Shown: positions 28,502-53,533 of the stretch, piece by piece | Numbering within the stretch: position 1 is the first letter of the stretch | Layout: each line of letters opens with the position of its first letter | Source: Tsukamurella conjunctivitidis | GTDB taxonomy: Bacteria; Actinomycetota; Actinomycetes; Mycobacteriales; Mycobacteriaceae | Direction of reading: 5' to 3' | Length of the DNA: 64,000 nucleotides | Assembly (NCBI RefSeq): GCF_007858475.1 | Contig: NZ_VIGX01000018.1 | Location: 1 to 64,000, forward strand | Made by a program: the position numbers and the translations under genes | Notes under the pieces: model-generated | Told to the model about the DNA's origin: nothing | Database searches by the model: none | The model's input: only the letters and a program-made list of their open reading frames with translations

Positions 28502-29677
28502 ATGCACCACGGGACACAGCAGGATCCGAACCCGGTGCGGGTTGCGGTCATCGGCATGGGCTGGATGGGGCGGGTGCACGCGCAGGCGTACGCCCGGGTG
28601 CCGCATCACTATCCGGACGGGCCTGCGCTGCCGGTCCTGGTCGCGGTGGCCGACGACGTCGCAGGGCGCGCGCAGGCCTTCGCCGCCCGCTTCGGGGCGG
28701 AGGCCGCGTACACCGATTGGCGTGCGGTCCTCGACGATCCGTCGATCGACGCCGTCTCGGTGACCGTGCCGAACTTCCTGCACCGGGATATCGGCGTCGC
28801 CGTGCTCGACGCGGGGAAGCATCTCTGGATCGAGAAGCCCGTCGGACTGACCGAGGCCGACGCTGCCGCCGTAGCCGCGGCCGCGGCGCGGAACGGCCGC
28901 CGCACCGCCGTCGGTTTCAACTACCGCAACGCCCCCGCCGTCCAGGCCGCCCGGGCGATGATCGCCGAGGGCCGGCTCGGTGCCGTCACGCACGCGCGTT
29001 TCCGCTTGTTCAGCGACTACGCGGCGCACCCCGACGGCGCGCTCACCTGGCGTTACCAGCGCGATCGGGGCGGCAACGGCGTGCTCGGGGACCTCGGTTC
29101 GCATGGCGTGGACCTGGTCACCCATCTCCTCGGGGACATCGACGCACTGGTCGCCGATACGGCGATCTTCATTCCCGAGCGGGCGGAGCCCACCGGAGCC
29201 ACCTCAGGGCATCAGCTCGCGACCTCCGGCGTGCGCGGCCCCGTCGAGAACGAGGATTACCTGTCGGCGCAGCTCCGGCTGGCCTCCGGGGCGCGCTGCG
29301 TGCTGGAGGCGAGCCGGATCGCGGTGGGGGAGCAGAACTCCTACGGCTTCGAGATCCACGGCACGTCGGGCATGGTGCGGTGGGACTACCGGCGGATGGG
29401 CGAGCTCGAGGCGTCGGTCGGTGCGGACTTCCAGGACCAGCCGGTGTCGATGGTGCACGTCGGGCCCGGCAGCGGCGACTACGCCGCGTTCCAGCCGGGC
29501 GCGGCGAACCCCATGGGCTACGACGACCTCAAGGTCATCGAGGCCCAGCACTTCCTGCGCTCCATCGTCACCGGCGTCCCCGAGGGTGCCACCGTCGACG
29601 ATGCGGTGCGCAGCGCCCGCGCGCTCGACGCCATGACCCGCTCGGTCGACGAGGGGCGCTGGGTGACGCTCGCGTAG
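28502..29677 (+). CDS. Gfo/Idh/MocA family oxidoreductase
   Basis: 391 residues. NAD(P)-dependent dehydrogenase of sugars or cyclitols. Rossmann motif VIGMGWMGRVHAQAY near residue 15; WIEKPVGL holds the catalytic Lys near 110; the active-site segment NGVLGDLGSHGVDLVTHLLG supplies Asp and His. The strong site AAGGAGG precedes ATG 28502. It is divergent from iolT and convergent with the TIM-barrel gene at 29730. Family members with this long C-terminal domain include inositol and 3-keto-glycoside forming dehydrogenases. The actual substrate cannot be read from the sequence. Confidence 0.88.
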   Translation: MHHGTQQDPNPVRVAVIGMGWMGRVHAQAYARVPHHYPDGPALPVLVAVADDVAGRAQAFAARFGAEAAYTDWRAVLDDPSIDAVSVTVPNFLHRDIGVAVLDAGKHLWIEKPVGLTEADAAAVAAAAARNGRRTAVGFNYRNAPAVQAARAMIAEGRLGAVTHARFRLFSDYAAHPDGALTWRYQRDRGGNGVLGDLGSHGVDLVTHLLGDIDALVADTAIFIPERAEPTGATSGHQLATSGVRGPVENEDYLSAQLRLASGARCVLEASRIAVGEQNSYGFEIHGTSGMVRWDYRRMGELEASVGADFQDQPVSMVHVGPGSGDYAAFQPGAANPMGYDDLKVIEAQHFLRSIVTGVPEGATVDDAVRSARALDAMTRSVDEGRWVTLA

Positions 29678-29689
29678 TCCGCGCGGAAC

Positions 29690-29721
29690 GGGTGCCGACG
29701 GTCCGCGGACCGTCGGCACCC
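29690..29721. terminator. Perfect hairpin between convergent genes
   Basis: Arms of 15 bp (GGGTGCCGACGGTCC at 29690-29704 and its complement at 29707-29721) are separated by two bases. This would terminate transcription from both the dehydrogenase and the isomerase genes. Confidence 0.8.
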
Positions 29722-29729
29722 GTCGTCCG

Positions 29730-30758
29730 TCACCCGCGCGCCGGTTCCGTCCGCAGGGATGCCGTGAGCGCGGCGTCCGCCGCGAGCAGGACCTCGGCCG
29801 CGACGGCGACGCCCTCCTCGCGGCCCAGCTCGGTGTCCTCGTGCTCGATGTTCACGAGCATGTCCGGATCGACCTCGTACAGGGCGCGGAGGAACTCGGT
29901 CCAGTACGCCACGTCGTGCCCCTTGCCGAGCGCGACGAAGTCCCACGCCGACTCCCGCGGCCACTCGTTCGCCCATTCGTCGCCACCGAGGTTGGTCCGC
30001 GGCTCGTCGGCACCGAGCCGGCGGAAGGAGTTGTCCAACACCCCGTTCAGTGCCGCGTGCTCCGGGTTGATCCGGACGTCCTTGGCGGCGGCGTGCACCA
30101 CCAGATCGCCGAGGTGCCGGACGACGGCGACCGGGTCCATCTGCTGCCAGAACAGATGCGAGGCGTCGAGCTCCACGCCGAGGTGAGTGGACCCGGTCCG
30201 CTCGACCAGCTCGTGCACCGACGCGCTGTTGAACACGAGGTTCTGCGGGTGCAGCTCGAGGGCCACCTTCACTCCGTGGTCCGCGGCCAGACGGTCGGTC
30301 TCGCGCCAGAAGTCGGCGGCGATCTCCCATTGGCGATCCAGCACGTCCAGGGCCGCGGAGTTCCATGCGTTGACCACCCAGTTCGGGTGCGCCGCAGCGG
30401 GGTCGCCGCCCGGCAGTCCGGACATGGTGACCACGCGATCCTGGCCCAGGCGGGCCGCCAGCCGGATCGAGCGGCGGACGTCGTCGGCGTGGCGGGCGCC
30501 GATCGCGCGGTTCGGGTGCAGCGGGTTGCCGTTGCAGTTGAGCCCGGCGATGGCGACGCCGGTGCCCTCGAAGGTCCCGAGGAAGTCGTCGCGGGCGGTG
30601 TCGCTCGCGAGGATGTCCGCGATGTTCGGCACGTGCACGGGCGGCAGGAAGCCGCCGGTGTTGAGCTCGATGCCGGTGAGGCCGACGTCGGCGATCGCGC
30701 GGAGCGCGTCGGGGAGCGGGCGGTCGTGGTAGATGGCGTTGTACAGGCCCAGTTTCAT
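29730..30758 (-). CDS. Sugar phosphate isomerase/epimerase-type TIM-barrel enzyme
   Basis: 342 residues of the xylose isomerase-like TIM-barrel (AP endonuclease 2) superfamily. Likely metal ligands are Glu in ALELHPQNLVFN, Asp and His in ELDASHLFW, His in VVHAAAKDVR and Glu in NIEHEDTELG, the usual four-ligand pattern. VTMSGLPGG is shared with the paralogue at 38508. Family members epimerise keto-sugars, dehydrate keto-inositols (IolE) or cleave 3-keto-glycosides. It follows the dehydrogenase gene at 30779 by 20 bp on the same strand, suggesting that it acts on the keto product of that enzyme. Start ATG 30758 with GGAGAA upstream. Confidence 0.85.
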   Translation of the reverse strand: MKLGLYNAIYHDRPLPDALRAIADVGLTGIELNTGGFLPPVHVPNIADILASDTARDDFLGTFEGTGVAIAGLNCNGNPLHPNRAIGARHADDVRRSIRLAARLGQDRVVTMSGLPGGDPAAAHPNWVVNAWNSAALDVLDRQWEIAADFWRETDRLAADHGVKVALELHPQNLVFNSASVHELVERTGSTHLGVELDASHLFWQQMDPVAVVRHLGDLVVHAAAKDVRINPEHAALNGVLDNSFRRLGADEPRTNLGGDEWANEWPRESAWDFVALGKGHDVAYWTEFLRALYEVDPDMLVNIEHEDTELGREEGVAVAAEVLLAADAALTASLRTEPARG

Positions 30759-30778
30759 GGGATTCTCCGTCGGGGATG

Positions 30779-31993
30779 TCAGGGCTGGGGGAGGAGGGCG
30801 GGCACGTCCACGGGTGCTCCGCCGGCGACAGCGGAGCGGGCGACGGCGTCGATGAGTTCCATGTTGTGCAATCCGTCGGCGAAGTCGGCGTTGCGCGGCA
30901 ACGATTCGTCGGCAGGTAGGCCCGCGATCTCCTCGAGGAGGGCGCGCGCCTGGAAGACGAAGCCGTCGTTCTGGCCGATTCCGACACCGGGTGCGTCCAT
31001 GGCGAGGCCGCCGCGCCAGTACGGGTGATCGGGGCCGAGGGTCACCGTCCGCGGCCCGCCGAGCGCGTGGTCGCCGTCGGTGAAGACGACCTGGACCTGC
31101 CCGGGGTTGCGGAAGTCGAACGCGGCCGAACCGCGCTCGCAGAAGATCTCGAACTTCAGGGTGTTGGGGTGCCCCGCCGCGACGCGGGAGACTTGCAGGG
31201 CACCCGTCCCGCCGCCGGCGAAGTCCACGAAGAAGCCGGCCACGTCGTCGTTCTCGACGGCTCCCCGCTCGTCGCTCACCGCGCCGTGCTCGTGGCCGAC
31301 CACGCGGCCGAGCGGCACCGGCCGCGTGGGGAACGTCGTGTGCAGCGTCGCGCCGCGGACCGTGGCGACTGGGCCGCCGAAGAGCTCGGCGATGTAGGTG
31401 AGGTGACTGCCGACGTCGGCGAGGGCGCCCGAGCCGGCGGGGCCCTTGAACCGCCAGCTGATGGGGCCGTCGGGGTCGCAGGCGTAGTCGGTCCAGTACG
31501 CACCGTCGAAATTGATGAGCCGACCGAGCCGCCCGCTGCGCACCAGGTCACCGAGCAGTGTGATGCCCGGCGATCGGAGGTAGGTCAGGCCGATCCGCCC
31601 GAGAACACCACGCTCCGCCGCCGCGTCTGCGGCGGCCACCATCGCGCGGGCGTCGTCGAGCGAGTCCGACAAGGGCTTTTCGCACAGCACGTGCTTGCCC
31701 GCGGCCAGCAGGGACTCGACGATCTCGCGGTGCAGCGAATTGGCGACGACGACGCTCACCACGTCGATGTCGTCCGCCGCTGCGATCGCCTGCCAGGACG
31801 TGTCGTGGCGTTCGAAGCCGAAGCGCCGGGCGGTGTCCTGCGCCAGCGGCTCGTACGCGTCCGCGATCGAAACCAGCCGCACGTCGGGCAGCCCGGGGCC
31901 GTAGACGGCGGTGGCGGATCGATAGCCGGCTGCGTGTGCCTTGCCCGCCATGCCGGCGCCGATCACCGCGACGCCGATGCTGTTGCTGCTCAT
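30779..31993 (-). CDS. Gfo/Idh/MocA family oxidoreductase
   Basis: 404 residues. Rossmann motif VIGAGMAGKAHAAGY at the N-terminus, catalytic Lys in LCEKPLSDS near residue 105, and SGALADVGSHLTYIAELFGG with Asp and His. AAGGAGGGAC lies just before ATG 31993. It is the first gene of a two-gene operon with the TIM-barrel enzyme. A LacI-type operator and a GntR-type site lie in the divergent region that it shares with the LacI gene at 32103, so its transcription should respond to the same inducer. Substrate unknown; a cyclitol or glycoside is plausible. Confidence 0.88.
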   Translation of the reverse strand: MSSNSIGVAVIGAGMAGKAHAAGYRSATAVYGPGLPDVRLVSIADAYEPLAQDTARRFGFERHDTSWQAIAAADDIDVVSVVVANSLHREIVESLLAAGKHVLCEKPLSDSLDDARAMVAAADAAAERGVLGRIGLTYLRSPGITLLGDLVRSGRLGRLINFDGAYWTDYACDPDGPISWRFKGPAGSGALADVGSHLTYIAELFGGPVATVRGATLHTTFPTRPVPLGRVVGHEHGAVSDERGAVENDDVAGFFVDFAGGGTGALQVSRVAAGHPNTLKFEIFCERGSAAFDFRNPGQVQVVFTDGDHALGGPRTVTLGPDHPYWRGGLAMDAPGVGIGQNDGFVFQARALLEEIAGLPADESLPRNADFADGLHNMELIDAVARSAVAGGAPVDVPALLPQP

Positions 31994-32045
31994 GTCCCTC
32001 CTTCAGGGGTTGCCGTGCGCTCCGTCGCGGCCTAGCGTCGATGGA

Positions 32046-32091
32046 GTTGGAGCGCTCCAACAATCATGAATAATGTTCGTATGTCCTGTCA
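32046..32091. promoter_or_regulatory. Divergent control region: LacI operator, promoter and two further sites
   Basis: GTTGGAGCGCTCCAAC (32046-32061) is a perfect 16-bp palindrome with the central CG step typical of LacI-family operators. It overlaps TTGGAG (32047-32052), a -35 for the rightward promoter, whose -10 TAATGT is at 32071-32076 (18-bp spacing). ATGTTCGTATGT (32073-32084) resembles the GntR-type sites. TGTCCTGTCA (32082-32091) sits at the predicted start point and recurs in inverse orientation at the iolC promoter (47036-47045). On the minus strand its complement contains TTGACA, a possible -35 for the dehydrogenase gene. Confidence 0.65.
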
Positions 32092-32102
32092 AGAGGAGTG
32101 TG

Positions 32103-33125
32103 ATGGCGGGTAAACGGCCGACGATCTACGACGTCGCGACGCGAGCGGGGGTATCGAAGTCCCTGGTCTCGCTCGTCCTGCAGGGGTCTCCTCGAGTCGG
32201 GGAGGGCTCGCGCCGCGCCGTCGAGGAGGCGATCGCTGACCTCGGGTATCGCCCCAGCAGGGCGGCGGCGAGTCTCGCCGCGCGTCGCACGCGCACCGTC
32301 GGGGTGCTGATCGACGACTACACGAACCTGTGGTTCGTGGACCTCGTGCGCGGCCTGCACGCGGCGCTGGGGCCGGCCGGCTACCGGCTGGCCGTCGTTG
32401 ACGTCGCGACCGCGGACCAGGCCGAGGATCCGGTCGAATCCATGCTCGCGATGCGGGTCGACGGGCTCGTTCTCGGCATGGATCCCCCGCGTTCACTGCT
32501 CGCGCGCGACGGTGCGGTGCTCCCGCCGGTCGTGGTCGCCGGCACGCGGGCCATGCGCGACGCCCGGTTCGACGCCGTTGCCAACGATGACGACGCGGGG
32601 GCGCGCCTCGTGGCGCGGCACCTCTGCGAACTGGGGCATCGCGCGCTCGGGCAGGTGTCCGCGGCCGGCGGCGCGGGCGACGCGCGACGTGCGGCGTTCG
32701 CCGACGAGGCCTCGCGCCTGGGGGCGACGGTGGTCGAAGCGTCCTGGCGCGGGGAGGCGTCGGACGAGGCGGGCTTCCGTGCGGCAGCCGAGTTGTTCGC
32801 GGCGGGTCCGCGGATCACCGCGATCTTCGCGGCGAACGACGTGCTGGCCGTCGGCGTGCTCGGCGCGGCGCGGGAGCGCGGGCTCGCCGTCCCGCGGGAG
32901 TTGTCCGTCGTGGGCTACGACGACACGTCGCTGGCCTCGGCTCGTCTCGTCGACCTGACCACTGTCGACGACCGCAGCTTCGACGTGGGGAACCGGGCGG
33001 GTGCGCTCCTGCGCGACCGGATGGGGGCGGACGGCGGCGGCGCACCGTCGGTGGCGCGCGACAGTCGGAGAGATGTTCTCGCACCGCGACTGATCGTCCG
33101 GGGAACCACTGGAGCTCCCGGTTGA
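32103..33125 (+). CDS. LacI family transcriptional regulator
   Basis: 340 residues from ATG 32103, chosen for AGAGGAG upstream. The LacI helix-turn-helix is complete (PTIYDVATRAGVSKSLVSLVLQGSPRV, then the hinge LGYRPSRAAASLAARRT). The effector domain is of the periplasmic-binding-protein type (TVGVLIDDYTNLWFVDLVRGLHAAL; AIFAANDVLAVGVLGAARERGLAVP; SVVGYDDTSLASARLVDLTTV). It stands between the leftward dehydrogenase/isomerase pair and the rightward ABC operon, and the palindrome at 32046-32061 is its likely operator. Inducer unknown, probably a sugar or cyclitol. Confidence 0.92.
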   Translation: MAGKRPTIYDVATRAGVSKSLVSLVLQGSPRVGEGSRRAVEEAIADLGYRPSRAAASLAARRTRTVGVLIDDYTNLWFVDLVRGLHAALGPAGYRLAVVDVATADQAEDPVESMLAMRVDGLVLGMDPPRSLLARDGAVLPPVVVAGTRAMRDARFDAVANDDDAGARLVARHLCELGHRALGQVSAAGGAGDARRAAFADEASRLGATVVEASWRGEASDEAGFRAAAELFAAGPRITAIFAANDVLAVGVLGAARERGLAVPRELSVVGYDDTSLASARLVDLTTVDDRSFDVGNRAGALLRDRMGADGGGAPSVARDSRRDVLAPRLIVRGTTGAPG

Positions 33126-33142
33126 GCCGCAAGATCGCGTCA

Positions 33143-33154
33143 ATGTGCGTATGT
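33143..33154. promoter_or_regulatory. Candidate GntR-type site upstream of the ABC importer operon
   Basis: ATGTGCGTATGT repeats the form ATGTkCGTATGT found at 32073-32084. It lies 90 bp before the binding-protein start. An imperfect LacI-like CAAGCGCTG follows at 33171-33179. Confidence 0.4.
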
Positions 33155-33245
33155 CTGAACAAACACTAGGCAAGCGCTGTGATCTGTACTACATTCAGCT
33201 CAGCGAGTGGGTCGTCTCACTCGGTGAGGTCGAAGGGACACAGCA

Positions 33246-34268
33246 ATGAAGAAGACCACGCAGCGGCCGCGGAGGCTCCGTACTCTGCTCGCCGCGACCG
33301 CGGCCGGCACGGCCGCGCTGATCACGGTGGTGGGGTGCTCGAGCACGGGCGGCGCGCCGCGCGACAGCGGCGACGGCGGTGCCGGCGTCGGCTCGGCGGG
33401 CACGAAGCGCCTGACCATCGCCATGGTCACGCACCAGCAGCCCGGCGACACCTTCTGGGACCTCATCCGCAAGGGGGCGGAGATGGCGGCGAAGAAGGAC
33501 AACGTCACCCTCCGCTACTCCAACGACCCGCAGGCCCCGAACCAGGCGAACCTCGTGCAGGCGGCGATCGACAGCAAGGTCGACGGGATCGCGCTCACCC
33601 TCTCCACGCCGAACGCCTTCCAGGCCGTCGTGCAGAACGCGCAGAAGGCGGGGATTCCGGTCTCCGCGTTCAACGCCGGCTACAACGACTACGCCCGCAT
33701 GGGGATCCAGCAGTACTTCGGCCAGGACGAGACCACCGCGGGCGTCGCCGTCGGCGAGCGCCTCGCGAAGGAGGGTGCCAAGAAGGCTATCTGCATCATC
33801 CAGCAGCAAGGCCAGGTCCAGCTCGAATCGCGCTGTGCGGGCGTGCGGACCGGCCTCGCGGGCGGCACCGTCGAGAATCTCAACGTCAACGGCGAGGACA
33901 TGACCGATGTGCAGTCCAAGGTCAACGCCAAGCTGCAGCAGGACCCGAGCATCGACACCGTCGTGGCGCTGGGCGCGCCCTTCGCGCTGACGGCCACCAA
34001 GGCGGTCGAGAGTGCCGGTGCCAAGCCCCGGATCGTCACCTTCGACACCAACGCAGCCCTGGTCGGCGCGATCCAGAACGGCAAGGTCGCGTGGGCCGTC
34101 GACCAGCAGCCCTACCTCCAGGGCTACCTCGCCATCGATTCGCTCTGGCTGCAGATCATCAACGGCAACACCATCGGCGGCGGCCAGGCGGTGTTCACCG
34201 GCCCGGCGTTCATCGATAAGACGAATGTCGACAAGGTCGCCGAGCTCGCCAAGGGCGGTACCCGCTGA
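33246..34268 (+). CDS. ABC transporter substrate-binding lipoprotein (sugar/cyclitol)
   Basis: 340 residues. An Arg-rich start, a hydrophobic segment and lipobox VVGC with Cys31 make it a lipoprotein anchored outside the membrane. The mature part is a Peripla_BP_4 domain (RbsB/FrcB type): TIAMVTHQQPGDTFWDLIRKGAEMAAK, then LVQAAIDSKVDGIALTLSTP and VVALGAPFALTATKAVESAG. It delivers a monosaccharide or cyclitol to the permease. The stop overlaps the permease start by one base (TGATG). The site GAAGGGACAC upstream serves ATG 33246. Ligand unknown; the adjacent dehydrogenases suggest an inositol-like compound. Confidence 0.9.
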   Translation: MKKTTQRPRRLRTLLAATAAGTAALITVVGCSSTGGAPRDSGDGGAGVGSAGTKRLTIAMVTHQQPGDTFWDLIRKGAEMAAKKDNVTLRYSNDPQAPNQANLVQAAIDSKVDGIALTLSTPNAFQAVVQNAQKAGIPVSAFNAGYNDYARMGIQQYFGQDETTAGVAVGERLAKEGAKKAICIIQQQGQVQLESRCAGVRTGLAGGTVENLNVNGEDMTDVQSKVNAKLQQDPSIDTVVALGAPFALTATKAVESAGAKPRIVTFDTNAALVGAIQNGKVAWAVDQQPYLQGYLAIDSLWLQIINGNTIGGGQAVFTGPAFIDKTNVDKVAELAKGGTR

Positions 34269-35326
34269 TGACCACCGACGAGGCTCTTGATCTGAGCACG
34301 CACACGCCCGTCACCGACGAGCGCGTCAAGAAGCAGAAGCCGCTGCAGCGGTTGATCCTGCGCCCCGAGGTGGGTGCGCTGATCGGCGCGATCGCGATCC
34401 TGATCTTCTTCCTCATCGTCGCGCCGCCCTTCCGCAGCCCGGAGGCCTTCGCCACCGTCCTCTACGCCAGCTCCACGATCGGCATCATGGCCTGCGGGGT
34501 CGCCGTGCTGATGATCGGCGGCGAGTTCGATCTGTCGACCGGTGTGGCCGTGACCTTCTCGTCCCTCGCGGCGTCGATGCTCGCCTACAACCTGCACCTG
34601 AACACCTGGGTGGGATCACTCCTCGCCCTGGGGCTGTCGCTCGCGGTCGGTGCCTTCAACGGCTACATGGTGATGCGAACCAGGATCCCCAGCTTCCTCA
34701 TCACGCTGGCGACCTTCCTCATGCTCACCGGCATCAACCTCGCGGTGACCAAGATGGTCACCGGTCAGGTCGCCACCCCGACGATCGCGGACATGCAGGG
34801 CTTCCCGTCGGCGCAGGCCGTCTTCTCGTCGACGATCCATGTCTTCGGGGTCGGGCTCAAGGTCACGGTCCTCTGGTGGGTGCTGTTCACGGTCGTCGCC
34901 ACGTACGTCCTCATGCGCACGCGCGTCGGGAACTGGATCTTCGCCGTCGGCGGCAACCAGGATTCCGCACGCGCCGTGGGCGTCCCGGTCACCAAGGTCA
35001 AGATCGGTCTGTTCATGTTCGTGGCCTTCTGCGCCTGGTTCGTCGGGCAGCACCTGCTGTACGCCTACGACACCGTCCAGTCCGGCCAGGGCGTCGGCAA
35101 CGAATTCCTCTACATCATCGGTGCCGTCATCGGCGGCTGCCTGCTCACCGGCGGCTACGGCACCGCGGTGGGCGCGATGATCGGCGCGTTCATCTTCGGC
35201 ATGGTCAACCAGTGCATCGTCTACGCCGGCTGGAACCCCGACTGGTTCAAGTTCTTCCTCGGCATCATGCTGCTGTTCGCCGTGATCGCCAACAACGCAT
35301 TCCGCAACTTCGCCGCGAAGAGGTGA
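34268..35326 (+). CDS. ABC transporter permease (RbsC/FrcC type)
   Basis: 352 residues with about ten transmembrane helices of the branched BPD_transp_2 family. Family marks: GGEFDLSTGVAVTFSSLAASMLAYN after the third helix, MRTRVGNWIFAVGGNQDSARAVGVPVTKVKI (the loop that meets the ATPase) and GGCLLTGGYGTAVGAMIGAFIFGM near the end. It forms the membrane channel for the substrate delivered by the lipoprotein encoded just upstream (1-bp overlap). Gene order binding protein, permease, ATPase is that of frcBCA. Confidence 0.92.
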   Translation: MTTDEALDLSTHTPVTDERVKKQKPLQRLILRPEVGALIGAIAILIFFLIVAPPFRSPEAFATVLYASSTIGIMACGVAVLMIGGEFDLSTGVAVTFSSLAASMLAYNLHLNTWVGSLLALGLSLAVGAFNGYMVMRTRIPSFLITLATFLMLTGINLAVTKMVTGQVATPTIADMQGFPSAQAVFSSTIHVFGVGLKVTVLWWVLFTVVATYVLMRTRVGNWIFAVGGNQDSARAVGVPVTKVKIGLFMFVAFCAWFVGQHLLYAYDTVQSGQGVGNEFLYIIGAVIGGCLLTGGYGTAVGAMIGAFIFGMVNQCIVYAGWNPDWFKFFLGIMLLFAVIANNAFRNFAAKR

Positions 35327-35330
35327 CCCT

Positions 35331-36143
35331 ATGACCACGGACGACATTTCGGTCGAGAGCCCCGAGACCGGCGACGACAAGGTCGCGCTGATCGAGTTCA
35401 AGGACGTCGGCAAGCAGTACGGCAACATCATCGCGCTCAAGGGGATCAACCTCCGGGTCTTCCCCGGCGAGGTCACGTGCGTGCTCGGCGACAACGGTGC
35501 CGGCAAGTCGACGCTCATCAAGACGATGGCGGGCCTGCACAAGCCGAGCGAGGGTGAGGTCCTCGTCGACGGCGTGGCGACGATGCTCGACTCGCCGAAG
35601 GACGCGCTCGAGAAGGGGATCGCCACCGTCTACCAGGACCTCGCTGTCGTGGGCCTGATGCCGGTGTGGCGCAACTTCTTCCTGGGGCAGGAACTGCGCT
35701 CCGGTTTCCTCAAGAGCCTGGACGTGCAGACCATGCGCGCCACCACGAAGGAGGAGCTGTTCAAGATGGGCATCGACCTGCCCGACGTGGACGCTCCGAT
35801 CAGCTCGCTGTCGGGCGGCCAGCGGCAGTGCGTCGCCATCGCGCGGGCGATCTACTTCGGCGCACGCGTGCTGATCCTCGACGAGCCGACCGCGGCCCTC
35901 GGGGTCAAGCAGTCGGGCATGGTGCTGCGATACATCACTGCGGCCCGGGACCAGGGCTTCGGCGTCGTCTTCATCACCCACAACCCGCACCACGCCTACA
36001 TGGTGGGCGACCATTTCGTCCTGCTCAACCGCGGACGCCAGAAGCTCGACTGCACCTACGACGAGATCAGTCTCGACGAGCTGACCTCGCAGATGGCGGG
36101 CGGCGACGAGCTCGAGACGCTCAGCCACGAACTGCGCAGGTGA
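35331..36143 (+). CDS. ABC transporter ATP-binding protein, single domain (FrcA type)
   Basis: 270 residues carrying one nucleotide-binding domain: Walker A GDNGAGKST near residue 53-61, Q-loop VYQDLAV, signature LSGGQRQCVAIARAI, Walker B VLILDEPTAAL and H-loop FITHNPHH. Most sugar importers with RbsC-type permeases use a fused double ATPase of about 500 residues (RbsA, XylG). The single domain, as in FrcA of rhizobia, must act as a homodimer. It is 4 bp after the permease gene and 4 bp before a dehydrogenase gene, so transport and the first oxidation are in one transcript. Confidence 0.92.
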   Translation: MTTDDISVESPETGDDKVALIEFKDVGKQYGNIIALKGINLRVFPGEVTCVLGDNGAGKSTLIKTMAGLHKPSEGEVLVDGVATMLDSPKDALEKGIATVYQDLAVVGLMPVWRNFFLGQELRSGFLKSLDVQTMRATTKEELFKMGIDLPDVDAPISSLSGGQRQCVAIARAIYFGARVLILDEPTAALGVKQSGMVLRYITAARDQGFGVVFITHNPHHAYMVGDHFVLLNRGRQKLDCTYDEISLDELTSQMAGGDELETLSHELRR

Positions 36144-36147
36144 GCGA

Positions 36148-37305
36148 GTGACGGCGACGCTCCTCGAACGCTTCGGTCGCCGGCTGCGGGTCGCGATGGT
36201 CGGCGGTGGGATCGGCAGCTACATCGGCGAGACCCACGCCATCGCGCTCCGTACCGACGGGGTGTGGGACCTCGTGGCGGGAGCCTTCTCCCGCACGTCG
36301 GCGACGAACGCGGCCACCGGGCGGTCGTGGCTCGTGGCACCCGATCGCACCTACGCCGACCACCGCGCCCTCATCGCGGGGGAGTCGGCGCGGGCGGACC
36401 GGGTGGACGCGGTCATCGTCGCGACCCGGCCGTCGAGTCACGCCGAGATCGCGTGCGACCTCCTGGCCGCGGGTTTCCACGTGATCTGTGAGAAGCCGCT
36501 CACCGATACCGCCGCAGACGCCCGACGGGTCGCGGCGGCGGTGGCCGGCTCGGGACGCCGCCTCATGCTCACCCATTGCTACAGCGGCTATCCCATGGTC
36601 CGGCAGGCCAGGGAGATGGTCGCCCGGGGCGACCTCGGCCGGATCACCCTGGTCGAGAGCAGGTTCGCCGGTGGGATGTACGCGGCGAACACACCGCACG
36701 GCTCGTGGCGCGTGGACGGCACGGAGGGCGGGGTCACCGCGCTGATCGCCGACCTCGGGACGCACGCCGTGCATCTCGCGGAGTTCGTCGCCGGCCGCCG
36801 CATCACGACGGTTCACGCCGACCTCGCCCGCGTCGATCCGGCGCACGTGGCCTTCGACAACGCCTACCTGACGCTCGATTTCGAGGGCGGCGCCCGCGGG
36901 CGGTGCTGGGCGACCTCGCAGGCCGCGGGGGCGACCCACGGGCTCGCGATCACCGTCCACGGCGACCGCGGCAGCCTTTCCTGGAACCACGACACCCCGG
37001 AGACGCTGTGCTGGCGCGCGGACGGCGAACCGGACCGCCTCCTGACCAAGTCCGGCCCTGGGGCCACGCCCGCCGCGCTCGCCGCGGCCCGGTTCACGGC
37101 GGGGCACCCGGACGGATACGCACTCGCCTTCGCGAATCTCTACCGCGACTTCGCGTTCGCGTTGTTCGCCGACGCCCTGGGCGACGATCCCGGGCCCCAT
37201 CTCGCTGATCTTCCGGACGTCGCCGACGGGGTCCGGACCCTCGCCGTCGTCGAGGCCGCCGTCCGCTCCGACGAGACCGGGCGCCCCGCCGCCGTCGACG
37301 CCTGA
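36148..37305 (+). CDS. Gfo/Idh/MocA family oxidoreductase
   Basis: 385 residues from GTG 36148. The Rossmann loop is the unusual MVGGGIGSYIGETHAIAL, typical of a subgroup found beside sugar ABC operons. Catalytic Lys is in ICEKPLTDT near residue 118; LIADLGTHAVHLAEFVAG gives the active-site Asp/His. A substrate-domain segment SNAAxx is not recognisable, so specificity cannot be guessed. It is the fourth gene of the importer operon, 4 bp after the ATPase, which ties it to the imported compound. Start and stop are clean, and the length is normal for the family (330-400). Confidence 0.87.
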   Translation: MTATLLERFGRRLRVAMVGGGIGSYIGETHAIALRTDGVWDLVAGAFSRTSATNAATGRSWLVAPDRTYADHRALIAGESARADRVDAVIVATRPSSHAEIACDLLAAGFHVICEKPLTDTAADARRVAAAVAGSGRRLMLTHCYSGYPMVRQAREMVARGDLGRITLVESRFAGGMYAANTPHGSWRVDGTEGGVTALIADLGTHAVHLAEFVAGRRITTVHADLARVDPAHVAFDNAYLTLDFEGGARGRCWATSQAAGATHGLAITVHGDRGSLSWNHDTPETLCWRADGEPDRLLTKSGPGATPAALAAARFTAGHPDGYALAFANLYRDFAFALFADALGDDPGPHLADLPDVADGVRTLAVVEAAVRSDETGRPAAVDA

Positions 37306-37330
37306 CCACTCCGACCCGAATCGAGAGACT

Positions 37331-38506
37331 ATGACCGAGCCGATCCGCGTGGCCCTCGTGGGCTGCGGCAACATCGCCCTGGGCTTTCACATCCCCGCGT
37401 ACCTCGCCGCCGACGACCGGTTCCGCATCGTCGGCATCGCCGATCCGACCCCGGAGCGGCTCGAGCTCGGCCGTGTCGCCGCAGGACTCACGCCGCAGCA
37501 GGTGCACGCGGACGTCGCCGACCTCCTGGCCCGCGAGGACGTCGACGCGCTCGACCTGTGCACCCCGCAGCACCTGCACCGCGACGTCGCGGTCGCCGCC
37601 GCCCGCGCGGGCAAGCACGTGTTGTGCGAGAAGCCGATCGCCGCGGTCCCCGCGGACGCCGAGGCCATGCGCGCGGCCGCCGCGGAAGCGGGAACGGTGC
37701 TCGCCGTGGTCGCGAACTACCTGTTCTTCCCGGAGGTGGTGGCGCTCCGGAGGATCATCGACTCCGGCGAGCTGGGTGAGATCCGCACGGCGCGCGTCGA
37801 CATGCTGGGTGTCCTGGACCTGCCGGGCGCGGCGGGGTACCGTCCCGCGTGGCGCCACGATCCCGCGCAGGCGGGTGGGGGAGTCCTGGTCGACATGCTG
37901 CACGGTGTGTACCTCGCCGAGGCGCTCCTCGGCGCGCGTGCGGAGCGGGTCTCGGCCTTCGTGGACAGCGCGACAGATGGCGACGCCGTTGACGGAATCG
38001 CGTTGTGTCGCCTCGAGGCCGGCCGTCGCGTCGCGCTGGTGAACATCGGCTGGGGCGTGGGCCAGGGAGGAATCGCGGTCGAGGGCGATCGCGGCCGGGC
38101 CGTCGCCCACTACCGTGCGGACGGGACCATGCCGTGGGCGCCGTTCGAATCTCTCACCGTCACCACGAAGTCCGGGACGCGCACCGCCGACCTCCCGATG
38201 GGAGCTGAACTGGAGCCGCTCATCGCCGCGTCGATGCGGGAGACCGTGCTCGACTTCGCCGATGCGGTCGCCGGCGGCCGCGCCCCCGTCGTCGATGCCG
38301 CAGTCGCCCGGCACATCCTCGAGATCACGGTCGCCGCGTACGCGTCGGGCGCCCTCGGCGCGACGGTGCCGCTCCCGCTCGACGGTGCGCTCTTCGCCTC
38401 GGGCGCCTCGGGCCTCGCCGACATCGGGGTGCCCGAGGACTCCTTCGTGCGCCGCCGCGGTCTGTTCGGGCTCTCGGTTCCGGCGTCGTCCGGGATCGGG
38501 GGCTGA
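37331..38506 (+). CDS. Gfo/Idh/MocA family oxidoreductase
   Basis: 391 residues. Rossmann motif LVGCGNIALGFHIPAY, catalytic Lys in LCEKPIAAVPADAEAM near residue 100, and the active-site segment GGGVLVDMLHGVYLAEALLGA, with Asp and His placed as in inositol dehydrogenases. It lies 25 bp after the previous dehydrogenase gene and one base before the TIM-barrel gene at 38508. The tight dehydrogenase/TIM-barrel pairing mirrors the 30779/29730 pair. Substrate not deducible. Confidence 0.87.
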   Translation: MTEPIRVALVGCGNIALGFHIPAYLAADDRFRIVGIADPTPERLELGRVAAGLTPQQVHADVADLLAREDVDALDLCTPQHLHRDVAVAAARAGKHVLCEKPIAAVPADAEAMRAAAAEAGTVLAVVANYLFFPEVVALRRIIDSGELGEIRTARVDMLGVLDLPGAAGYRPAWRHDPAQAGGGVLVDMLHGVYLAEALLGARAERVSAFVDSATDGDAVDGIALCRLEAGRRVALVNIGWGVGQGGIAVEGDRGRAVAHYRADGTMPWAPFESLTVTTKSGTRTADLPMGAELEPLIAASMRETVLDFADAVAGGRAPVVDAAVARHILEITVAAYASGALGATVPLPLDGALFASGASGLADIGVPEDSFVRRRGLFGLSVPASSGIGG

Positions 38507-38507
38507 C

Positions 38508-39458
38508 GTGCAGATCGGATTGCTCACCGACAGTCTCTCGGACCTGACCCGCGCCGAGGCGCTCGACACCGCGGTGGACCTCGGTGTCGAGACCGTCGAG
38601 ATCGGCTTGGGCGGCGTGCACGGCGGGTGGTCGCCCGCCCCGCACGCCGACCTGGCGGAACTCCGCAGCGACGGTGGCGCGCGTGCGGCCCTGGCCCGCG
38701 ACATCGCGTCTCGCGGCCTGCGCCTCGAGGCCTTCAACGCCTCCGGTAACCCGCTGCATCCCCGGCACGGGGAGCGCGATGCCGCCGTCCTGCGCGGCGC
38801 TCTCCAGCTCGCGCAGGAGTTCGAGATCGGCACCGTCGTCACTATGTCCGGCCTTCCCGGCTATCCGGGGGACACCGTGCCACCGTGGATCACCACCGTC
38901 TGGCCGCCCGAGAATCTGGAACTCCTGGACTACCAGTGGGAGCGGGCGATCGAGTGGTGGGGGCCGATCGCCGACGAGGCCCGTGCCAGGGGCGTGCGGA
39001 TCGCCGTCGAGATGCACGCGAACCAGCTCGTCTACAGCGTCCCCGGCCTCTTACGGCTGCGCGCCGCCGTCGGCGACGCGGTGGGCGCGAACGTCGATCC
39101 CAGCCATCTCATCTGGATGGGCGCCGACCCGCTCGCCGCGATCCGCGCGCTGGACGGCGCGATCCATCACGTCCACGCCAAAGACACCCGCATCGAGGAC
39201 CGCGCTGCGGTCGCCTCGCGGCTCGAGACCGTCCCGAACCCGCGCACCGAGGAGCGGGCGTGGAACTACGTCGCGGTCGGCACCGGGCACCCCGACGGCG
39301 TCGACTTCTGGGTGCGGTTCATCGCGAACGCGCGCCTCGCGGGCTACGACGGTCCGCTGTCCATCGAGAACGAGGACTACACGCTGGGCCAGCGCGAATC
39401 CGTGGCGCTGGCCGTCGAGACGCTGCGCGGAGCGCAGAAACTGGAGGAGGTGCGATGA
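38508..39458 (+). CDS. Sugar phosphate isomerase/epimerase-type TIM-barrel enzyme
   Basis: 316 residues from GTG 38508. It is a clear paralogue of the 29730 product: both have VVTMSGLPG, a Leu-Asp-xx-Trp-Glu segment (ELLDYQWERAIEWW), a metal Glu in AVEMHANQLVYS, Asp/His in NVDPSHLIW, His in HHVHAKDTR and Glu in SIENEDYTLGQ. These are the ligands of the xylose isomerase-like superfamily. Expected reactions are epimerisation, dehydration or cleavage of a keto-sugar or keto-cyclitol formed by the neighbouring dehydrogenases. It overlaps the next dehydrogenase gene by 4 bp. Confidence 0.86.
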   Translation: MQIGLLTDSLSDLTRAEALDTAVDLGVETVEIGLGGVHGGWSPAPHADLAELRSDGGARAALARDIASRGLRLEAFNASGNPLHPRHGERDAAVLRGALQLAQEFEIGTVVTMSGLPGYPGDTVPPWITTVWPPENLELLDYQWERAIEWWGPIADEARARGVRIAVEMHANQLVYSVPGLLRLRAAVGDAVGANVDPSHLIWMGADPLAAIRALDGAIHHVHAKDTRIEDRAAVASRLETVPNPRTEERAWNYVAVGTGHPDGVDFWVRFIANARLAGYDGPLSIENEDYTLGQRESVALAVETLRGAQKLEEVR

Positions 39459-40456
39459 GCAGGACCCGGATCGCGGTGCTGGGTTGCGGCCGGATCGGGC
39501 GAGTGCACGCCGATTCCGTCGCGGTGAGCGACCGCGCCGAGCTGACGTGGGTCTTCGACCCGATCGAGGCGGCTGCACGGGAGGTCGGGGAGCGCTACGG
39601 CGCGGCGTGGGCGACCGACGTGGAGGACGTCCTCGCGGCCGGCGATGTGGACGCCGTCGTGGTGGCCTCGCCCACGCCGACGCACGTGGACCTGCTCAGC
39701 CGAGCGGTGCGCACCGGCCGGACCGTGCTGTGCGAGAAGCCCATCGACCTCGACATCGCCCGGGTCGACGCCTGCCGCGCCGATCTCGGCGACCTCACCG
39801 ACAGGGTGATGCTCGGCTTCAACAGGCGGTTCGACGCCTCCTTCGCCGAGGTCCGCCGTCGCGTCGACGCGGGAGAGGTCGGCCCGCTGGAGCAGCTCAC
39901 CATCGTCAGCCGCGATCCCGCGCCGCCGCCGGCGGACTACGTCGCCTCGTCGGGCGGGCTGTTCCGGGACATGATGATCCACGATCTCGATCTCGCTCGG
40001 TCCTTCCTCGGCGAGGTGGTGGCGGTGTCGGCCCTGGGATCGAACCTGGTCTCCGCGGAGATCCGCGCGGCCGGCGACGTCGACGGCGCCATGGTGGTGC
40101 TGCGCGGCGCCGGCGGGCAGCTGGCGACGATCACCAACTCCCGGCGCTGCGCCTACGGCTACGACCAGCGGCTCGAGGCCTTCGGCGCGTTGGGCGCGCT
40201 CACCGCGGCCAATCAGCACGCGACCTCCGTGAACTTCTCGGGGGCGGCGTACACCGGTGCCGCGGGCCCGGCCCTGAACTTCTTCCTGGATCGCTACACG
40301 CCCGCCTACCGTGCCGAGCTCGACGCCTTCGTGACGATGACCGAGACCGGCGGCGTCGCGTCGCCCGGGTTCGACGACGGCCGGGCCGCGCTGCTGCTCG
40401 CCGACGCCGCTGCCGAGTCGCTCCGCACCGGAGCCGTGGTGGAGGTCCGCGCGTGA
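39455..40456 (+). CDS. Gfo/Idh/MocA oxidoreductase, inositol 2-dehydrogenase-like (IolG paralogue)
   Basis: 333 residues from ATG 39455 with GGAGGTGCG before it. It has the compact inositol-dehydrogenase layout: VLGCGRIGRVHADSV, Lys in LCEKPIDLD near residue 95, MLGFNRRFDASF, and GGLFRDMMIHDLDLARSFLG with the catalytic Asp and His of IolG. The C-terminus (RYTPAYRAELDAFVTM) is also IolG-like. A second IolG is encoded at 54520 in the iol operon, so this copy may act on another isomer such as scyllo- or D-chiro-inositol. It overlaps both neighbours by 4 bp. Confidence 0.85.
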   Translation: MSRTRIAVLGCGRIGRVHADSVAVSDRAELTWVFDPIEAAAREVGERYGAAWATDVEDVLAAGDVDAVVVASPTPTHVDLLSRAVRTGRTVLCEKPIDLDIARVDACRADLGDLTDRVMLGFNRRFDASFAEVRRRVDAGEVGPLEQLTIVSRDPAPPPADYVASSGGLFRDMMIHDLDLARSFLGEVVAVSALGSNLVSAEIRAAGDVDGAMVVLRGAGGQLATITNSRRCAYGYDQRLEAFGALGALTAANQHATSVNFSGAAYTGAAGPALNFFLDRYTPAYRAELDAFVTMTETGGVASPGFDDGRAALLLADAAAESLRTGAVVEVRA

Positions 40457-41469
40457 CGGTGCGCTGGGGCCTGCTGTCGACGTCGGGGATCGGTCGGGTC
40501 GCCGCCCGCGCGATCGCTGCGGCCGACGGTGCCGAGCTCGTCGCCGTCGCCGGGCGCGAGCCCGATCGTGCCGCGGCGTACGCCGCCGAGGTCGGGGTGC
40601 CCGTCGCGTTCGGGAGCTACGAGGAGCTGCTCGCCGACAGCGGCATCGACGCGGTCTACGTGCCGCTGCCGATCACACTCCACGGTGAGTGGGCGATCCG
40701 GGCGCTGGAGGCGGGGAAGCACGTGCTGTGCGAGAAGCCGCTCACCCTGGACCCGGATGAGGCGACGGCTGTCTTCGACGCCGCGGAGCGTGCGGGGCGG
40801 CTCGCGATAGAGGGCTTCATGTGGCGGCTGCACCCGCAGACGCTGCTGGTCCGTCGACTGCTCGCGGAGGGCGCGGTCGGTGAGCTCGCGCTCGTCCGCG
40901 CTGCGCTCAGCGTGAGCGCCCCGCCCGGCGACATCCGGCGCACGACCGACCTCGGCGGCGGCGCGCTGGCGGATCTCGGCGGATACTGCGTCAGTGCGGT
41001 CCGCCTGTTCGGCGGCGAACCGTCGACGGTGCGTGCCGTGCGGGTCGCCGACCCCACCGGGACGGGCGCGGGCCACGATCTGCGCGCCTCCGCGGTGTTC
41101 GAGCTCGATTCCGGCGCGATGGGGCTCATCGACGTGGGCCTCGACCTGGAGCGGCGCGATCAGCTCGAGCTCGTCGGCAGCTCGGGGCGGATCGTCGTCG
41201 AGGACCCGTGGCTGTGCCGCTCGGGCACCATCGAAGTGATCCGTGGAGAGCGGTCCGAGAGTCTGCCCGCAGACCCGAGCGGAGCCTTCCGGCTCACCGC
41301 AGCGGGCCCGGACAACGAGGACGCCTACCGGATCGAGTTCGAGGCCGCGAGCGCGGCGTTCGCCGGAGAGGTGAGCCCGCCGTTCGGCCGCGCCGATGCG
41401 ATCGCGCAGGCCCGTGCTCTCGCGGCCACGCGGCGCTCCGCCGCGGAGGGCGTCACGGTCCGCCTGTAA
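40453..41469 (+). CDS. Gfo/Idh/MocA oxidoreductase of the dihydrodiol/xylose dehydrogenase subgroup
   Basis: 338 residues from GTG 40453. It differs from the other paralogues: the Rossmann loop is LLSTSGIGRVAARAI, and the active site reads GGALADLGGYCVSAVRLFGG, with Tyr where IolG-like enzymes have His. A Lys-Tyr pair (LCEKPLTLD and the DLGGY tyrosine) is characteristic of glucose-fructose oxidoreductase, D-xylose dehydrogenase and dimeric dihydrodiol dehydrogenase. It therefore probably oxidises the anomeric carbon of an aldose. It is the last gene of the eight-gene operon from 33246, followed by a hairpin. Confidence 0.85.
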   Translation: MTVRWGLLSTSGIGRVAARAIAAADGAELVAVAGREPDRAAAYAAEVGVPVAFGSYEELLADSGIDAVYVPLPITLHGEWAIRALEAGKHVLCEKPLTLDPDEATAVFDAAERAGRLAIEGFMWRLHPQTLLVRRLLAEGAVGELALVRAALSVSAPPGDIRRTTDLGGGALADLGGYCVSAVRLFGGEPSTVRAVRVADPTGTGAGHDLRASAVFELDSGAMGLIDVGLDLERRDQLELVGSSGRIVVEDPWLCRSGTIEVIRGERSESLPADPSGAFRLTAAGPDNEDAYRIEFEAASAAFAGEVSPPFGRADAIAQARALAATRRSAAEGVTVRL

Positions 41470-41481
41470 CGCCCCGCCACT

Positions 41482-41507
41482 GCCCGACGGTGCGGTCACC
41501 GTCGGGC
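41482..41507. terminator. Hairpin at the end of the importer/dehydrogenase operon
   Basis: GCCCGACGGT (41482-41491) and its exact complement (41498-41507) flank a 6-nt loop and overlap the last codons of the convergent MFS gene. Confidence 0.65.
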
Positions 41508-46822: not shown

Positions 46823-46872
46823 GCGATGCAGTCTAGTGCACCGAACGGCGAAACGCGGCCGCTGATCTCTCT

Positions 46873-46922
46873 TTGTTCGTACAATCGCGCCTTGCTTCAC
46901 GAGCAGGTCTATGTCCGCACAT
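46873..46922. promoter_or_regulatory. Two candidate IolR operators upstream of the GntR gene
   Basis: TTGTTCGTACAA (46873-46884) and ATGTCCGCACAT (46911-46922) share the near-palindrome wTGTnCGnACAw, with centres 38 bp apart. A half-site, ATGTTCGTC, follows at 46932-46940. Confidence 0.55.
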
Positions 46923-47006
46923 ATCTCGATCATGTTCGTCTCGGGGATCCGGCTCCGGCGCGGAGCGCTCGCCTTCATTTCAATGATCTGTGCAGTTGAG
47001 AGGCTA

Positions 47007-47045
47007 TTGAAGTATGTCGGCACCTTCTGTTAGATTGACAGGACA
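47007..47045 (+). promoter_or_regulatory. Predicted iolC promoter with operator at the start point
   Basis: TTGAAG (47007-47012) and TTAGAT (47030-47035) are 17 bp apart. TGACAGGACA (47036-47045) covers the expected start of transcription. Its reverse complement, TGTCCTGTCA, occurs at the same place relative to the predicted promoter of the LacI gene (32082-32091). It also fits the C. glutamicum IolR motif that I recall (KGWCHTRACA) at nine of ten positions. Confidence 0.55.
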
Positions 47046-47101
47046 AACGAGCGGGAGTGATCCACATCTCGTCCGGGACCAGGCTAAGGAGGGCCTCCCA
47101 C

Positions 47102-53477: not shown

Positions 53478-53533
53478 GCCGCGCCCGACACCAGCGCCCA
53501 CCACTCCGCACGACCCACGTAAGGACCACCGAC

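What the first reader, a model, noticed from the sequence alone, without database searches (positions are those of the whole stretch)
28502..41469. Six linked dehydrogenases and two paralogous TIM-barrel enzymes: candidate oxidise-then-rearrange pathway
Besides the iol operon, the block encodes six Gfo/Idh/MocA dehydrogenases (28502, 30779, 36148, 37331, 39455, 40453) and two paralogous xylose-isomerase-like enzymes (29730, 38508), arranged twice as a tight dehydrogenase/TIM-barrel pair (30779+29730; 37331+38508), with an ABC importer and a LacI regulator. Gfo/Idh/MocA enzymes make keto-sugars or keto-cyclitols, and TIM-barrel partners are known to dehydrate, epimerise or cleave such products (IolE; 3-keto-glycoside lyases/hydrolases). 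Inference: a route for other inositol isomers, inositol ethers or glycosides that enters the iol pathway. Such a large set in one place is more than myo-inositol alone needs.
Basis: partly seen in the sequence, partly recalled or inferred. Interest (0 to 1): 0.72.

Follow-up and report, generated by a model that had tools for sequence, protein, structure and literature searches.

The report
Inositol-isomer catabolism island in Tsukamurella
A soil actinobacterium carries, beside its ordinary inositol operon, an importer, six extra sugar-alcohol dehydrogenases and two barrel enzymes that most likely let it feed several inositol isomers into one pathway; most parts resemble known enzymes, and a few look new.

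Summary
The best reading is an inositol-isomer regulon. DH2-TIM1 is gene-for-gene the Corynebacterium glutamicum oxiB-cg0212 pair (65% and 78% identity), with the same divergent LacI and an identical palindrome. OxiB is a published myo-/scyllo-inositol dehydrogenase; Cg0212 is, from memory only, an inosose isomerase. DH5 resembles OxiD. The importer's binding protein is closest to a structure reported as a myo-inositol transporter. A motif like the recalled IolR box marks the iol, importer and DH2/LacI promoters. In 58 of 77 loci elsewhere, TIM2 relatives directly follow an IolG/OxiD-type dehydrogenase. Levoglucosan and 3-keto-glycoside family cut-offs are missed. Open: TIM2; DH4, whose catalytic motif is one residue short; DH6, with Tyr for the catalytic His; and a LacI-dioxygenase-SDR cassette inside the island. 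No biochemistry was done.

The parts
26888..28342 (-). SP: sugar-porter MFS transporter, divergent from DH1
   Evidence: TIGR00879 323 bits over cut-off 237.8
28502..29677 (+). DH1: Gfo/Idh/MocA dehydrogenase of the scyllo-inositol/levoglucosan dehydrogenase subfamily
   Evidence: Pfam; PDB 6a3f 1.6e-69, 5ya8 2.1e-65; NF052479 282 bits, cut-off 650 not met
29730..30758 (-). TIM1: xylose-isomerase-like TIM barrel, counterpart of C. glutamicum Cg0212
   Evidence: PF01261; 78% identity to the gene after oxiB
30779..31993 (-). DH2: OxiB-type inositol dehydrogenase
   Evidence: 65% identity to C. glutamicum OxiB, tree support 100/100
32047..32060 (.). Palindrome TTGGAGCGCTCCAA, candidate operator of LacI1
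   Evidence: only exact copy in the genome; exact at the same junction in nine other fetched same-genus genomes and in C. glutamicum
32073..33125 (+). LacI1: LacI-family regulator divergent from DH2 (start may lie at 32100 or 32103)
   Evidence: PF00356 and Peripla_BP_3; start codons
32082..32091 (-). IolR-like motif TGACAGGACA at the DH2/LacI junction, inside the longest LacI1 ORF
33152..33161 (+). IolR-like motif TGTCTGAACA upstream of the importer operon
33246..34268 (+). SBP: importer substrate-binding protein, nearest PDB 4ru1
   Evidence: E 6e-104; 4ru1 described as a verified myo-inositol transporter in PMC10747050 (passages)
34268..35326 (+). importer permease
   Evidence: PF02653
35331..36143 (+). 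importer ATPase, single ABC domain, 270 aa
   Evidence: PF00005 once
36148..37305 (+). DH3: Gfo/Idh/MocA dehydrogenase near 3v5n/7d5m/3dty
37331..38506 (+). DH4: divergent Gfo/Idh/MocA dehydrogenase with catalytic D-x-x-H one residue shorter than usual
38508..39458 (+). TIM2: xylose-isomerase-like TIM barrel with conserved E168 D197 H223 E287, candidate inosose isomerase
39455..40456 (+). DH5: OxiD-type inositol 2-dehydrogenase
   Evidence: TIGR04380 371 bits over cut-off 355; 3euw 8.5e-102
40453..41469 (+). DH6: Gfo/Idh/MocA oxidoreductase with Tyr in place of the catalytic His
41496..42908 (-). MFS transporter, 52% identical to one next to iolH in C. glutamicum
42948..43739 (-). SDR-family oxidoreductase behind PhyH (start approximate)
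   Evidence: NF004847 365 bits over cut-off 240
43733..44923 (-). PhyH-family dioxygenase
   Evidence: PF05721 113 bits
44838..46085 (+). LacI2: second LacI-type regulator, divergent from PhyH (true start probably downstream of 44923)
   Evidence: ORF; its counterpart is annotated LacI in T. tyrosinosolvens (matched); no NCBIfam match at 1e-10
46082..47023 (-). GntR regulator, counterpart of C. glutamicum IolR
   Evidence: 51% identity to the gene divergent from iolC
47036..47045 (+). IolR-like motif TGACAGGACA upstream of iolC
47057..48079 (+). iolC
   Evidence: TIGR04382 371 bits over cut-off 300
48072..48986 (+). Cgl0159-like aldolase
   Evidence: PF22649 426 bits
48860..50530 (+). iolA (true start near 49050)
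   Evidence: TIGR01722 673 bits over cut-off 448.5, match from residue 64
50587..51528 (+). iolB (end approximate; no family search made of it)
   Evidence: reading frame; annotated order in T. tyrosinosolvens
51540..53477 (+). iolD
   Evidence: TIGR04377 over cut-off
53375..54478 (+). iolE (true start downstream)
   Evidence: TIGR04379 137 bits, cut-off 290 not met; 71% to C. glutamicum IolE
54520..55542 (+). iolG
   Evidence: 61% to C. glutamicum IolG
55552..56427 (+). iolH
   Evidence: 67% to C. glutamicum IolH

Best explanation
The block is the peripheral half of an inositol-utilisation regulon. The ABC importer and the sugar porter take up inositols. DH2 (OxiB type), DH5 (OxiD type), DH1 and probably DH3/DH4 oxidise different isomers (myo-, scyllo-, D-chiro-inositol and perhaps others) with NAD to keto-inositols. 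[quoted passage not shown] The GntR regulator ties the iol, importer and DH2/LacI promoters together, and LacI1 adds local control of DH2-TIM1. Shown by sequence: gene content, synteny, counterparts of DH2, TIM1, DH5 and SBP, shared motifs. Inferred: every substrate, the regulator-to-motif assignments, the isomerase role of TIM1 (from a recalled paper on Cg0212) and of TIM2 (by analogy and gene context).
For: DH2-TIM1 matches C. glutamicum oxiB-cg0212 in order, identity (65%, 78%) and divergent LacI. OxiB acts on myo- and weakly on scyllo-inositol (PMC9603128). TTGGAGCGCTCCAA is exact at the LacI-DH2 junction in the window, in nine other fetched same-genus genomes and at the C. glutamicum oxiB promoter. 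TGWCWGRACA occurs 3 times in the window against 0.29 expected, at DH2/LacI, SBP and iolC, and at the iolC and oxiB promoters of C. glutamicum. SBP to 4ru1 6e-104, 4ru1's role in PMC10747050. DH5 is closest to 3euw = OxiD, which accepts myo- and D-chiro-inositol. TIM1/TIM2-type genes co-occur with iolD: 14 of 15 carriers against 148 of 379 non-carriers among 394 class genomes (Fisher 2.7e-5), and 10 of the 12 iolD-positive against 0 of the 4 iolD-negative genomes of the genus (0.008). TIM2 relatives: 64 of 77 loci have a Gfo/Idh/MocA gene directly upstream; 58 of those 64 are of IolG/OxiD type and have the YGY motif reported as more conserved in myo/D-chiro dehydrogenases.
Against: No substrate was measured. 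The Cg0212 isomerase role is recalled, not retrieved. TIM1 and 10 of its 11 relatives compared have Ala where TIM2 has the His of the putative metal site. Only 21 of 58 well-flanked TIM2 loci show an iol gene within the fetched flanks (up to 10 kb); 11 of 58 show neither iol nor importer genes; and the 80 loci were the best-scoring of at least 563. The YGY motif also occurs in IdhA3, which did not support growth on inositols, and CgIolG has FGY. In the upstream dehydrogenases the catalytic Asp aligns to Asn in 36, Glu in 12 and Asp in 16 of 64. Genome G011 has DH4 without TIM2 or TIM1 anywhere in the genome at 1e-20. The class and genus counts are not corrected for relatedness. The TGWCWGRACA motif was read from the promoters before it was counted; the recalled IolR box itself has no match in the window.
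Confidence: 0.75

Rival explanations
1. Anhydrosugar (levoglucosan) pathway: DH1/DH2 are levoglucosan dehydrogenases and the TIM barrels the beta-eliminase and hydratase (LgdA-LgdB1-LgdB2/B3-LgdC).
For: The best PDB match of DH1 and DH2 is levoglucosan dehydrogenase 6a3f. In the tree DH1 falls nearer LgdA than OxiB, weakly (91/87, drawn open). The pathway is a published oxidise-eliminate-hydrate-reduce route with the same two superfamilies (PMC7676230, abstract and Discussion), and LgdB2 is around 325 residues, close to TIM1 and TIM2 (342, 316).
Against: NF052479 reached only 282 and 252 bits against a cut-off of 650. DH2 groups with OxiB at 100/100. The LgdA proteins of the two isolates in PMC10066097 are 70% or more identical to characterised ones. 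LgdB1, reported for 253 of 265 lgdA neighbourhoods, is about 275 residues. Importer and promoter motifs point to inositol. LgdB1 and LgdB2 themselves were not compared with TIM1/TIM2.
Confidence: 0.05
2. Glycoside route: 3-oxidation of glycosides followed by TIM-barrel lyase or hydrolase action (BT2158/BT2159 type, DgpA type).
For: DH4 gives weak PDB matches to DgpA (3.8e-23); superfamilies are the same.
Against: NF058561 and NF058563 at most 42 bits against 750 and 650; importer and motifs point to inositol.
Confidence: 0.06
3. DH3-DH4-TIM2-DH6 handle a cyclitol derivative rather than a free inositol isomer (O-methyl-, deoxy- or amino-inositol), with the PhyH-SDR cassette doing the first oxidation.
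For: DH4 and DH6 depart from the standard inositol dehydrogenase active site. LacI2-PhyH-SDR recurs as a unit: LacI2 relative in 8 of 9 and SDR relative next in 6 of 9 non-Tsukamurella plasmid regions opened, out of 46 found. It lies one gene from iolE-iolD-iolC in Thioclava, and PhyH follows iolD-iolE in Tropicimonas (L080).
Against: PhyH relatives appear in only 4 of the 77 TIM2 loci outside the genus (L054, L080, L084, L118). In 8 of the 9 plasmid regions no iol gene is annotated in the stretch shown. No substrate evidence.
Confidence: 0.14

Closest known systems
C. glutamicum iol1 cluster (iolR, iol operon, iolW, lacI, oxiB, cg0212)
   Same: DH2 and TIM1 counterparts in the same order, divergent LacI with the identical 14-bp palindrome, GntR next to iolC, shared motif
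   Different: Here an ABC importer operon with DH3, DH4, TIM2, DH5, DH6, and DH1, are added; no window dehydrogenase is close to IolW (best 26-33%, partial)
C. glutamicum iol2 cluster (oxiC-cg3390-oxiD-oxiE)
   Same: DH5 is 52% identical to OxiD
   Different: Cg3390 gives no blastp match to TIM2 or TIM1 at 1e-3, and OxiC/OxiE are not close to DH4/DH6
Bacillus subtilis IolI inosose isomerase
   Same: proposed reaction, named in PMC9603128; TIM-barrel fold recalled
   Different: The PDB sequence search returned only 2zds for TIM1 and TIM2 at 1e-6
Levoglucosan pathway LgdA/LgdB1/LgdB2/LgdC
   Same: Dehydrogenase plus TIM-barrel logic; DH1/DH2 in the same broad subfamily
   Different: Family cut-off not met; context inositol
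Paracoccus laeviglucosivorans scyllo-inositol dehydrogenase (5ya8)
   Same: DH1 and DH2 match it at 2.1e-65 and 3.5e-55; DH3's matches 3v5n and 3dty are in its clade in PMC5969746 (passages)
   Different: Not the closest PDB match for DH1, DH2 or DH3

Membership tests
oxiB-cg0212 module | OxiB counterpart followed by Cg0212 counterpart | tested here: met
   65% and 78% identity, adjacent, same order
oxiB-cg0212 module | divergent LacI gene with shared operator-like site | tested here: met
   exact TTGGAGCGCTCCAA in both
oxiB-cg0212 module | inositol dehydrogenase and inosose isomerase activity | not testable with these tools
   needs enzymes
Inositol 2-dehydrogenase TIGR04380 | score over curated cut-off 355 | tested here: met
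   DH5 only, 371 bits; the other five DHs score 69-112 bits, not met
Levoglucosan dehydrogenase NF052479 | score over curated cut-off 650 | tested here: not met
   282 (DH1), 252 (DH2), at most 93 for the other four
Glycoside 3-dehydrogenases NF058561/NF058563 | score over curated cut-off 750/650 | tested here: not met
   at most 42 bits
IolE TIGR04379 | score over cut-off 290 | tested here: not met
   TIM1 37.7, TIM2 34.0 bits; the window's own iolE also misses it at 137 bits, so the cut-off is strict
Rhizopine importer NF052284 | score over cut-off 420 | tested here: not met
   SBP 197 bits
IolI-type inosose isomerase | fold and metal site | tested here: inconclusive

The most novel reading that the evidence does not exclude
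The island holds an undescribed route for modified cyclitols: the LacI2-controlled PhyH dioxygenase and SDR hydroxylate (or O-demethylate) a methylated or deoxy inositol such as pinitol, ononitol or a quercitol, the non-canonical oxidoreductases DH4 and DH6 and the isomerase TIM2 convert the product to 2-keto-myo-inositol, and the iol operon finishes it. TIM2 would then found a family of keto-cyclitol isomerases shared with rhizobia.
Probability: 0.13. Interest if true: 0.7.

Novelty: new variant of a known kind. Interest (0 to 1): 0.4.

Why it matters
It gives names to parts that annotation calls only oxidoreductase or sugar phosphate isomerase, ties them to inositol use through counterparts and shared promoter motifs, and picks out TIM2, DH4 and DH6 as the pieces worth assaying. 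PMC9603128 (2022) says that the C. glutamicum isomerase for D-chiro-inositol was still being sought (passage); TIM1/TIM2-type genes are direct candidates in Actinomycetes and Alphaproteobacteria, and a recalled later paper names Cg0212. PhyH-SDR beside inositol genes may point to how bacteria use modified plant cyclitols: none of the 20 papers listed (of 99 found) holds 'phytanoyl-CoA dioxygenase', so the library searches made here gave no lead on it.

Tried and rejected
First idea that 37331-38508-39455-40453 is the C. glutamicum iol2 set oxiC-cg3390-oxiD-oxiE: rejected except for DH5, since Cg3390 gives no match to TIM2 and OxiC/OxiE are not close to DH4/DH6.

Cg2312 as TIM2 counterpart: no blastp match at 1e-3. 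Rhizopine (MocB) importer: cut-off missed. Levoglucosan and glycoside readings: cut-offs missed. A literature search with four family and domain terms found nothing.

The ORF at 44982-45758 minus was first carried as a gene; it is the antisense of LacI2, so 'u_44982' means LacI2, and 'iolB' means the aldolase at 48072.

The C. glutamicum IolR consensus KGWCHTRACA, recalled, has no exact match in the window (0 found, 0.85 expected). The related TGWCWGRACA was then read from aligned promoters and counted, so its in-window count is not independent. The window's SP/DH1 promoter has no exact copy; some relatives do.

The recalled paper on Cg0212 and Cg2312 as inosose isomerases (Ramp and colleagues, Metabolic Engineering 2023) is not held and was not listed; nothing of it was read.
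Full report
Setting. The window is contig C98, 1-64000, of a 5.07-Mb genome in 343 contigs. Named relatives identify the genus as Tsukamurella: the three best genome contigs matches are T. sputi, Tsukamurella sp. PLM1 and T. ocularis, and T. tyrosinosolvens carries the same island.

Observation. Nine PF01408 matches exist in the genome, eight over the cut-off, and seven of these eight are in this window; the chance under uniform placement is about 4e-13. Regions were fetched from ten other same-genus genomes. The order from DH1 to gltX is kept in six (G002, G003, G004, G005, G010, G014) and, with two extra genes between the ATPase and DH4, in G008. Reduced versions exist: G012 has DH1, TIM1, DH2, LacI1, the importer and DH5 but no DH3, DH4 or TIM2 in the stretch; G006, in small contigs, shows LacI1-DH2-TIM1-DH1; G011 has the importer, DH4, DH5 and the PhyH cassette; G009 has DH1, the importer and DH5. 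G009 and G011 have no TIM1 or TIM2 match in the whole genome at 1e-20. The island is therefore partly modular.

DH2-TIM1. Genome G732 was identified as C. glutamicum because it encodes a protein 100% identical over the 327 searched residues to PDB 3euw, which PMC9603128 names as OxiD of C. glutamicum (section read). Its iol1 region holds GntR, iolC, aldolase, iolA, iolD, iolE, iolG, iolH, an MFS gene, a dehydrogenase, a reverse LacI, a 411-aa dehydrogenase and a 337-aa TIM barrel (iolB was not sought there). PMC9603128 puts three dehydrogenases in iol1: IolG, IolW, OxiB. The first of the two unnamed ones has the Ala-Arg that the paper gives for IolW, which leaves the 411-aa protein as OxiB (cg0211) and the barrel, by position, as cg0212. 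OxiB is 65% identical to DH2 and Cg0212 78% identical to TIM1. Between LacI and the dehydrogenase both organisms have the exact palindrome TTGGAGCGCTCCAA; it is exact in the window and nine other fetched same-genus genomes with this junction, and is the only exact copy in the window's genome. [quoted passage not shown] I recall that Cg0212 was later reported as an inosose isomerase interconverting 2-keto-myo-inositol and 1-keto-D-chiro-inositol; that paper is not held and was not read.

Other dehydrogenases. DH5 passes the inositol 2-dehydrogenase cut-off and is closest to OxiD (52%), with YGY at motif V. DH1 belongs with the levoglucosan/scyllo-inositol dehydrogenase group. DH3 is nearest to 3v5n, 7d5m/n and 3dty; PMC5969746 puts 3v5n and 3dty in the scyllo-inositol dehydrogenase clade (passages). 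DH4 has the catalytic Asp and His one residue closer than usual, D-M-L-H, in 6 of 6 DH4 sequences compared. DH6 and four close relatives lack a standard GxGxxG and have Tyr for His; from memory this is the pattern of KijD10 and glucose-fructose oxidoreductase, relatives of which are among its PDB matches. In the 57-row tree DH2 groups with OxiB (100/100), DH5 with OxiD (100/99) and the window's iolG with CgIolG (100/100); the deepest splits are weak, and DH3, OxiC, IolW and OxiE sit on long branches.

TIM2. A scan of genome contigs with alignment A1 kept the best 80 loci of at least 563 relatives; three are Tsukamurella. In the other 77, a Gfo/Idh/MocA gene lies directly upstream in 64. By best match the partners are of IolG type (37), OxiD/DH5 type (21), DH4 (3: Pseudonocardia, Kineosphaera, Gordonia), DH2-like (2: Sinorhizobium, Ensifer; about 36% identity) and DH6 (1). 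The 58 of the first two types all have YGY at motif V, which PMC9603128 reports as more conserved in dehydrogenases for myo- and D-chiro-inositol; the other 6 do not. Among 58 loci with at least 5 kb on both sides, 15 have iolD, 21 any iol gene sought, 30 a binding protein or permease like the window's, 47 one or the other, 11 neither. Residues E168, D197, H223 and E287 are kept in 31 of 31 aligned TIM2 relatives, while TIM1, Cg0212 and 10 of 11 TIM1-type relatives have Ala at 223, and IolE has His at 168. That these are metal ligands is recalled from related enzymes. A partner-swapping TIM barrel that mostly follows dehydrogenases of the D-chiro-capable type fits an inosose isomerase; it is not proof. 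Counter-evidence: the catalytic Asp aligns to Asn in 36 and Glu in 12 of 64 partners, and G011 has DH4 without TIM2.

Regulation and co-occurrence. TGWCWGRACA occurs three times in the window (0.29 expected; 1 of 100 shuffles reaches 3): at the DH2/LacI junction, before SBP, and before iolC. A 12-letter form has five matches genome-wide, three of them these. Between genes in the fetched relatives it appears before SBP in ten loci, before iolC in nine and at the DH2/LacI junction in four, and in C. glutamicum before iolC and oxiB. It resembles the recalled IolR box with one change; the recalled box itself is absent from the window. TIM1/TIM2-type genes and iolD go together: 14 of 15 carriers (the exception is G142) against 148 of 379 other class genomes (the two searches drew 394 genomes each, taken as the same set by handle), and 10 of 12 iolD-positive against 0 of 4 iolD-negative genomes of the genus, without correction for relatedness. 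The binding protein's best PDB match is 4ru1 at 6e-104, called a verified myo-inositol transporter in PMC10747050 (passages).

PhyH cassette. Between DH6 and the iol operon lies LacI2, divergent from a PhyH-family dioxygenase and an SDR. Of 47 plasmid records with a PhyH relative, one of them Tsukamurella, nine non-Tsukamurella regions were opened: a LacI2 relative adjoins in 8 of 9 and an SDR relative follows in 6 of 9. In one of nine (Thioclava) iolE-iolD-iolC lie one gene away; Peteryoungia has a Gfo/Idh/MocA gene, purU and a sugar importer close by. Among the 77 TIM2 loci 4 have a PhyH relative, in Tropicimonas right after iolD-iolE. The substrate is unknown; a modified cyclitol is a guess.

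Verdict. Ordinary in plan, enlarged in content: an inositol-isomer island built on a module known from C. glutamicum, with TIM2, DH4, DH6 and the PhyH cassette as the unexplained pieces.

Noticed in passing
window 42948-46085: LacI2-PhyH-SDR cassette, recurring as a unit on proteobacterial plasmids and here placed inside the inositol island.
   Followed up: partly
window 35331-36143: The importer ATPase has a single ABC domain (270 aa), whereas the sugar-importer ATPase models it matches best are about 490-510 aa.
   Followed up: no
L182 (NZ_LR134451.1): The record labelled plasmid 9 of T. tyrosinosolvens carries serA, a 3-isopropylmalate dehydrogenase gene and gltX beside the island, so it may be a chromosomal piece.
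   Followed up: no
L180:11664-12437: In G009 an IolE-like gene (TIGR04379 168 bits) stands next to LacI2, where PhyH stands in other genomes.
   Followed up: partly
L033, L034 (G014): DH4 and gltX match in two pieces each, perhaps sequencing errors in that genome.
   Followed up: no
window 48072-48986: Cgl0159-like aldolase between iolC and iolA, perhaps standing in for the iolJ aldolase.
   Followed up: no
L190:12230-13114: purU (formyltetrahydrofolate deformylase) between a Gfo/Idh/MocA gene and a sugar importer near the PhyH cassette in Peteryoungia, a possible sign of one-carbon release; no purU relative turned up in the other loci searched.
   Followed up: partly
L027:9850-13200 (G008): G008 has an extra LacI-like gene and an extra Gfo/Idh/MocA gene (41% to DH5) inserted between the ATPase and DH4.
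   Followed up: no
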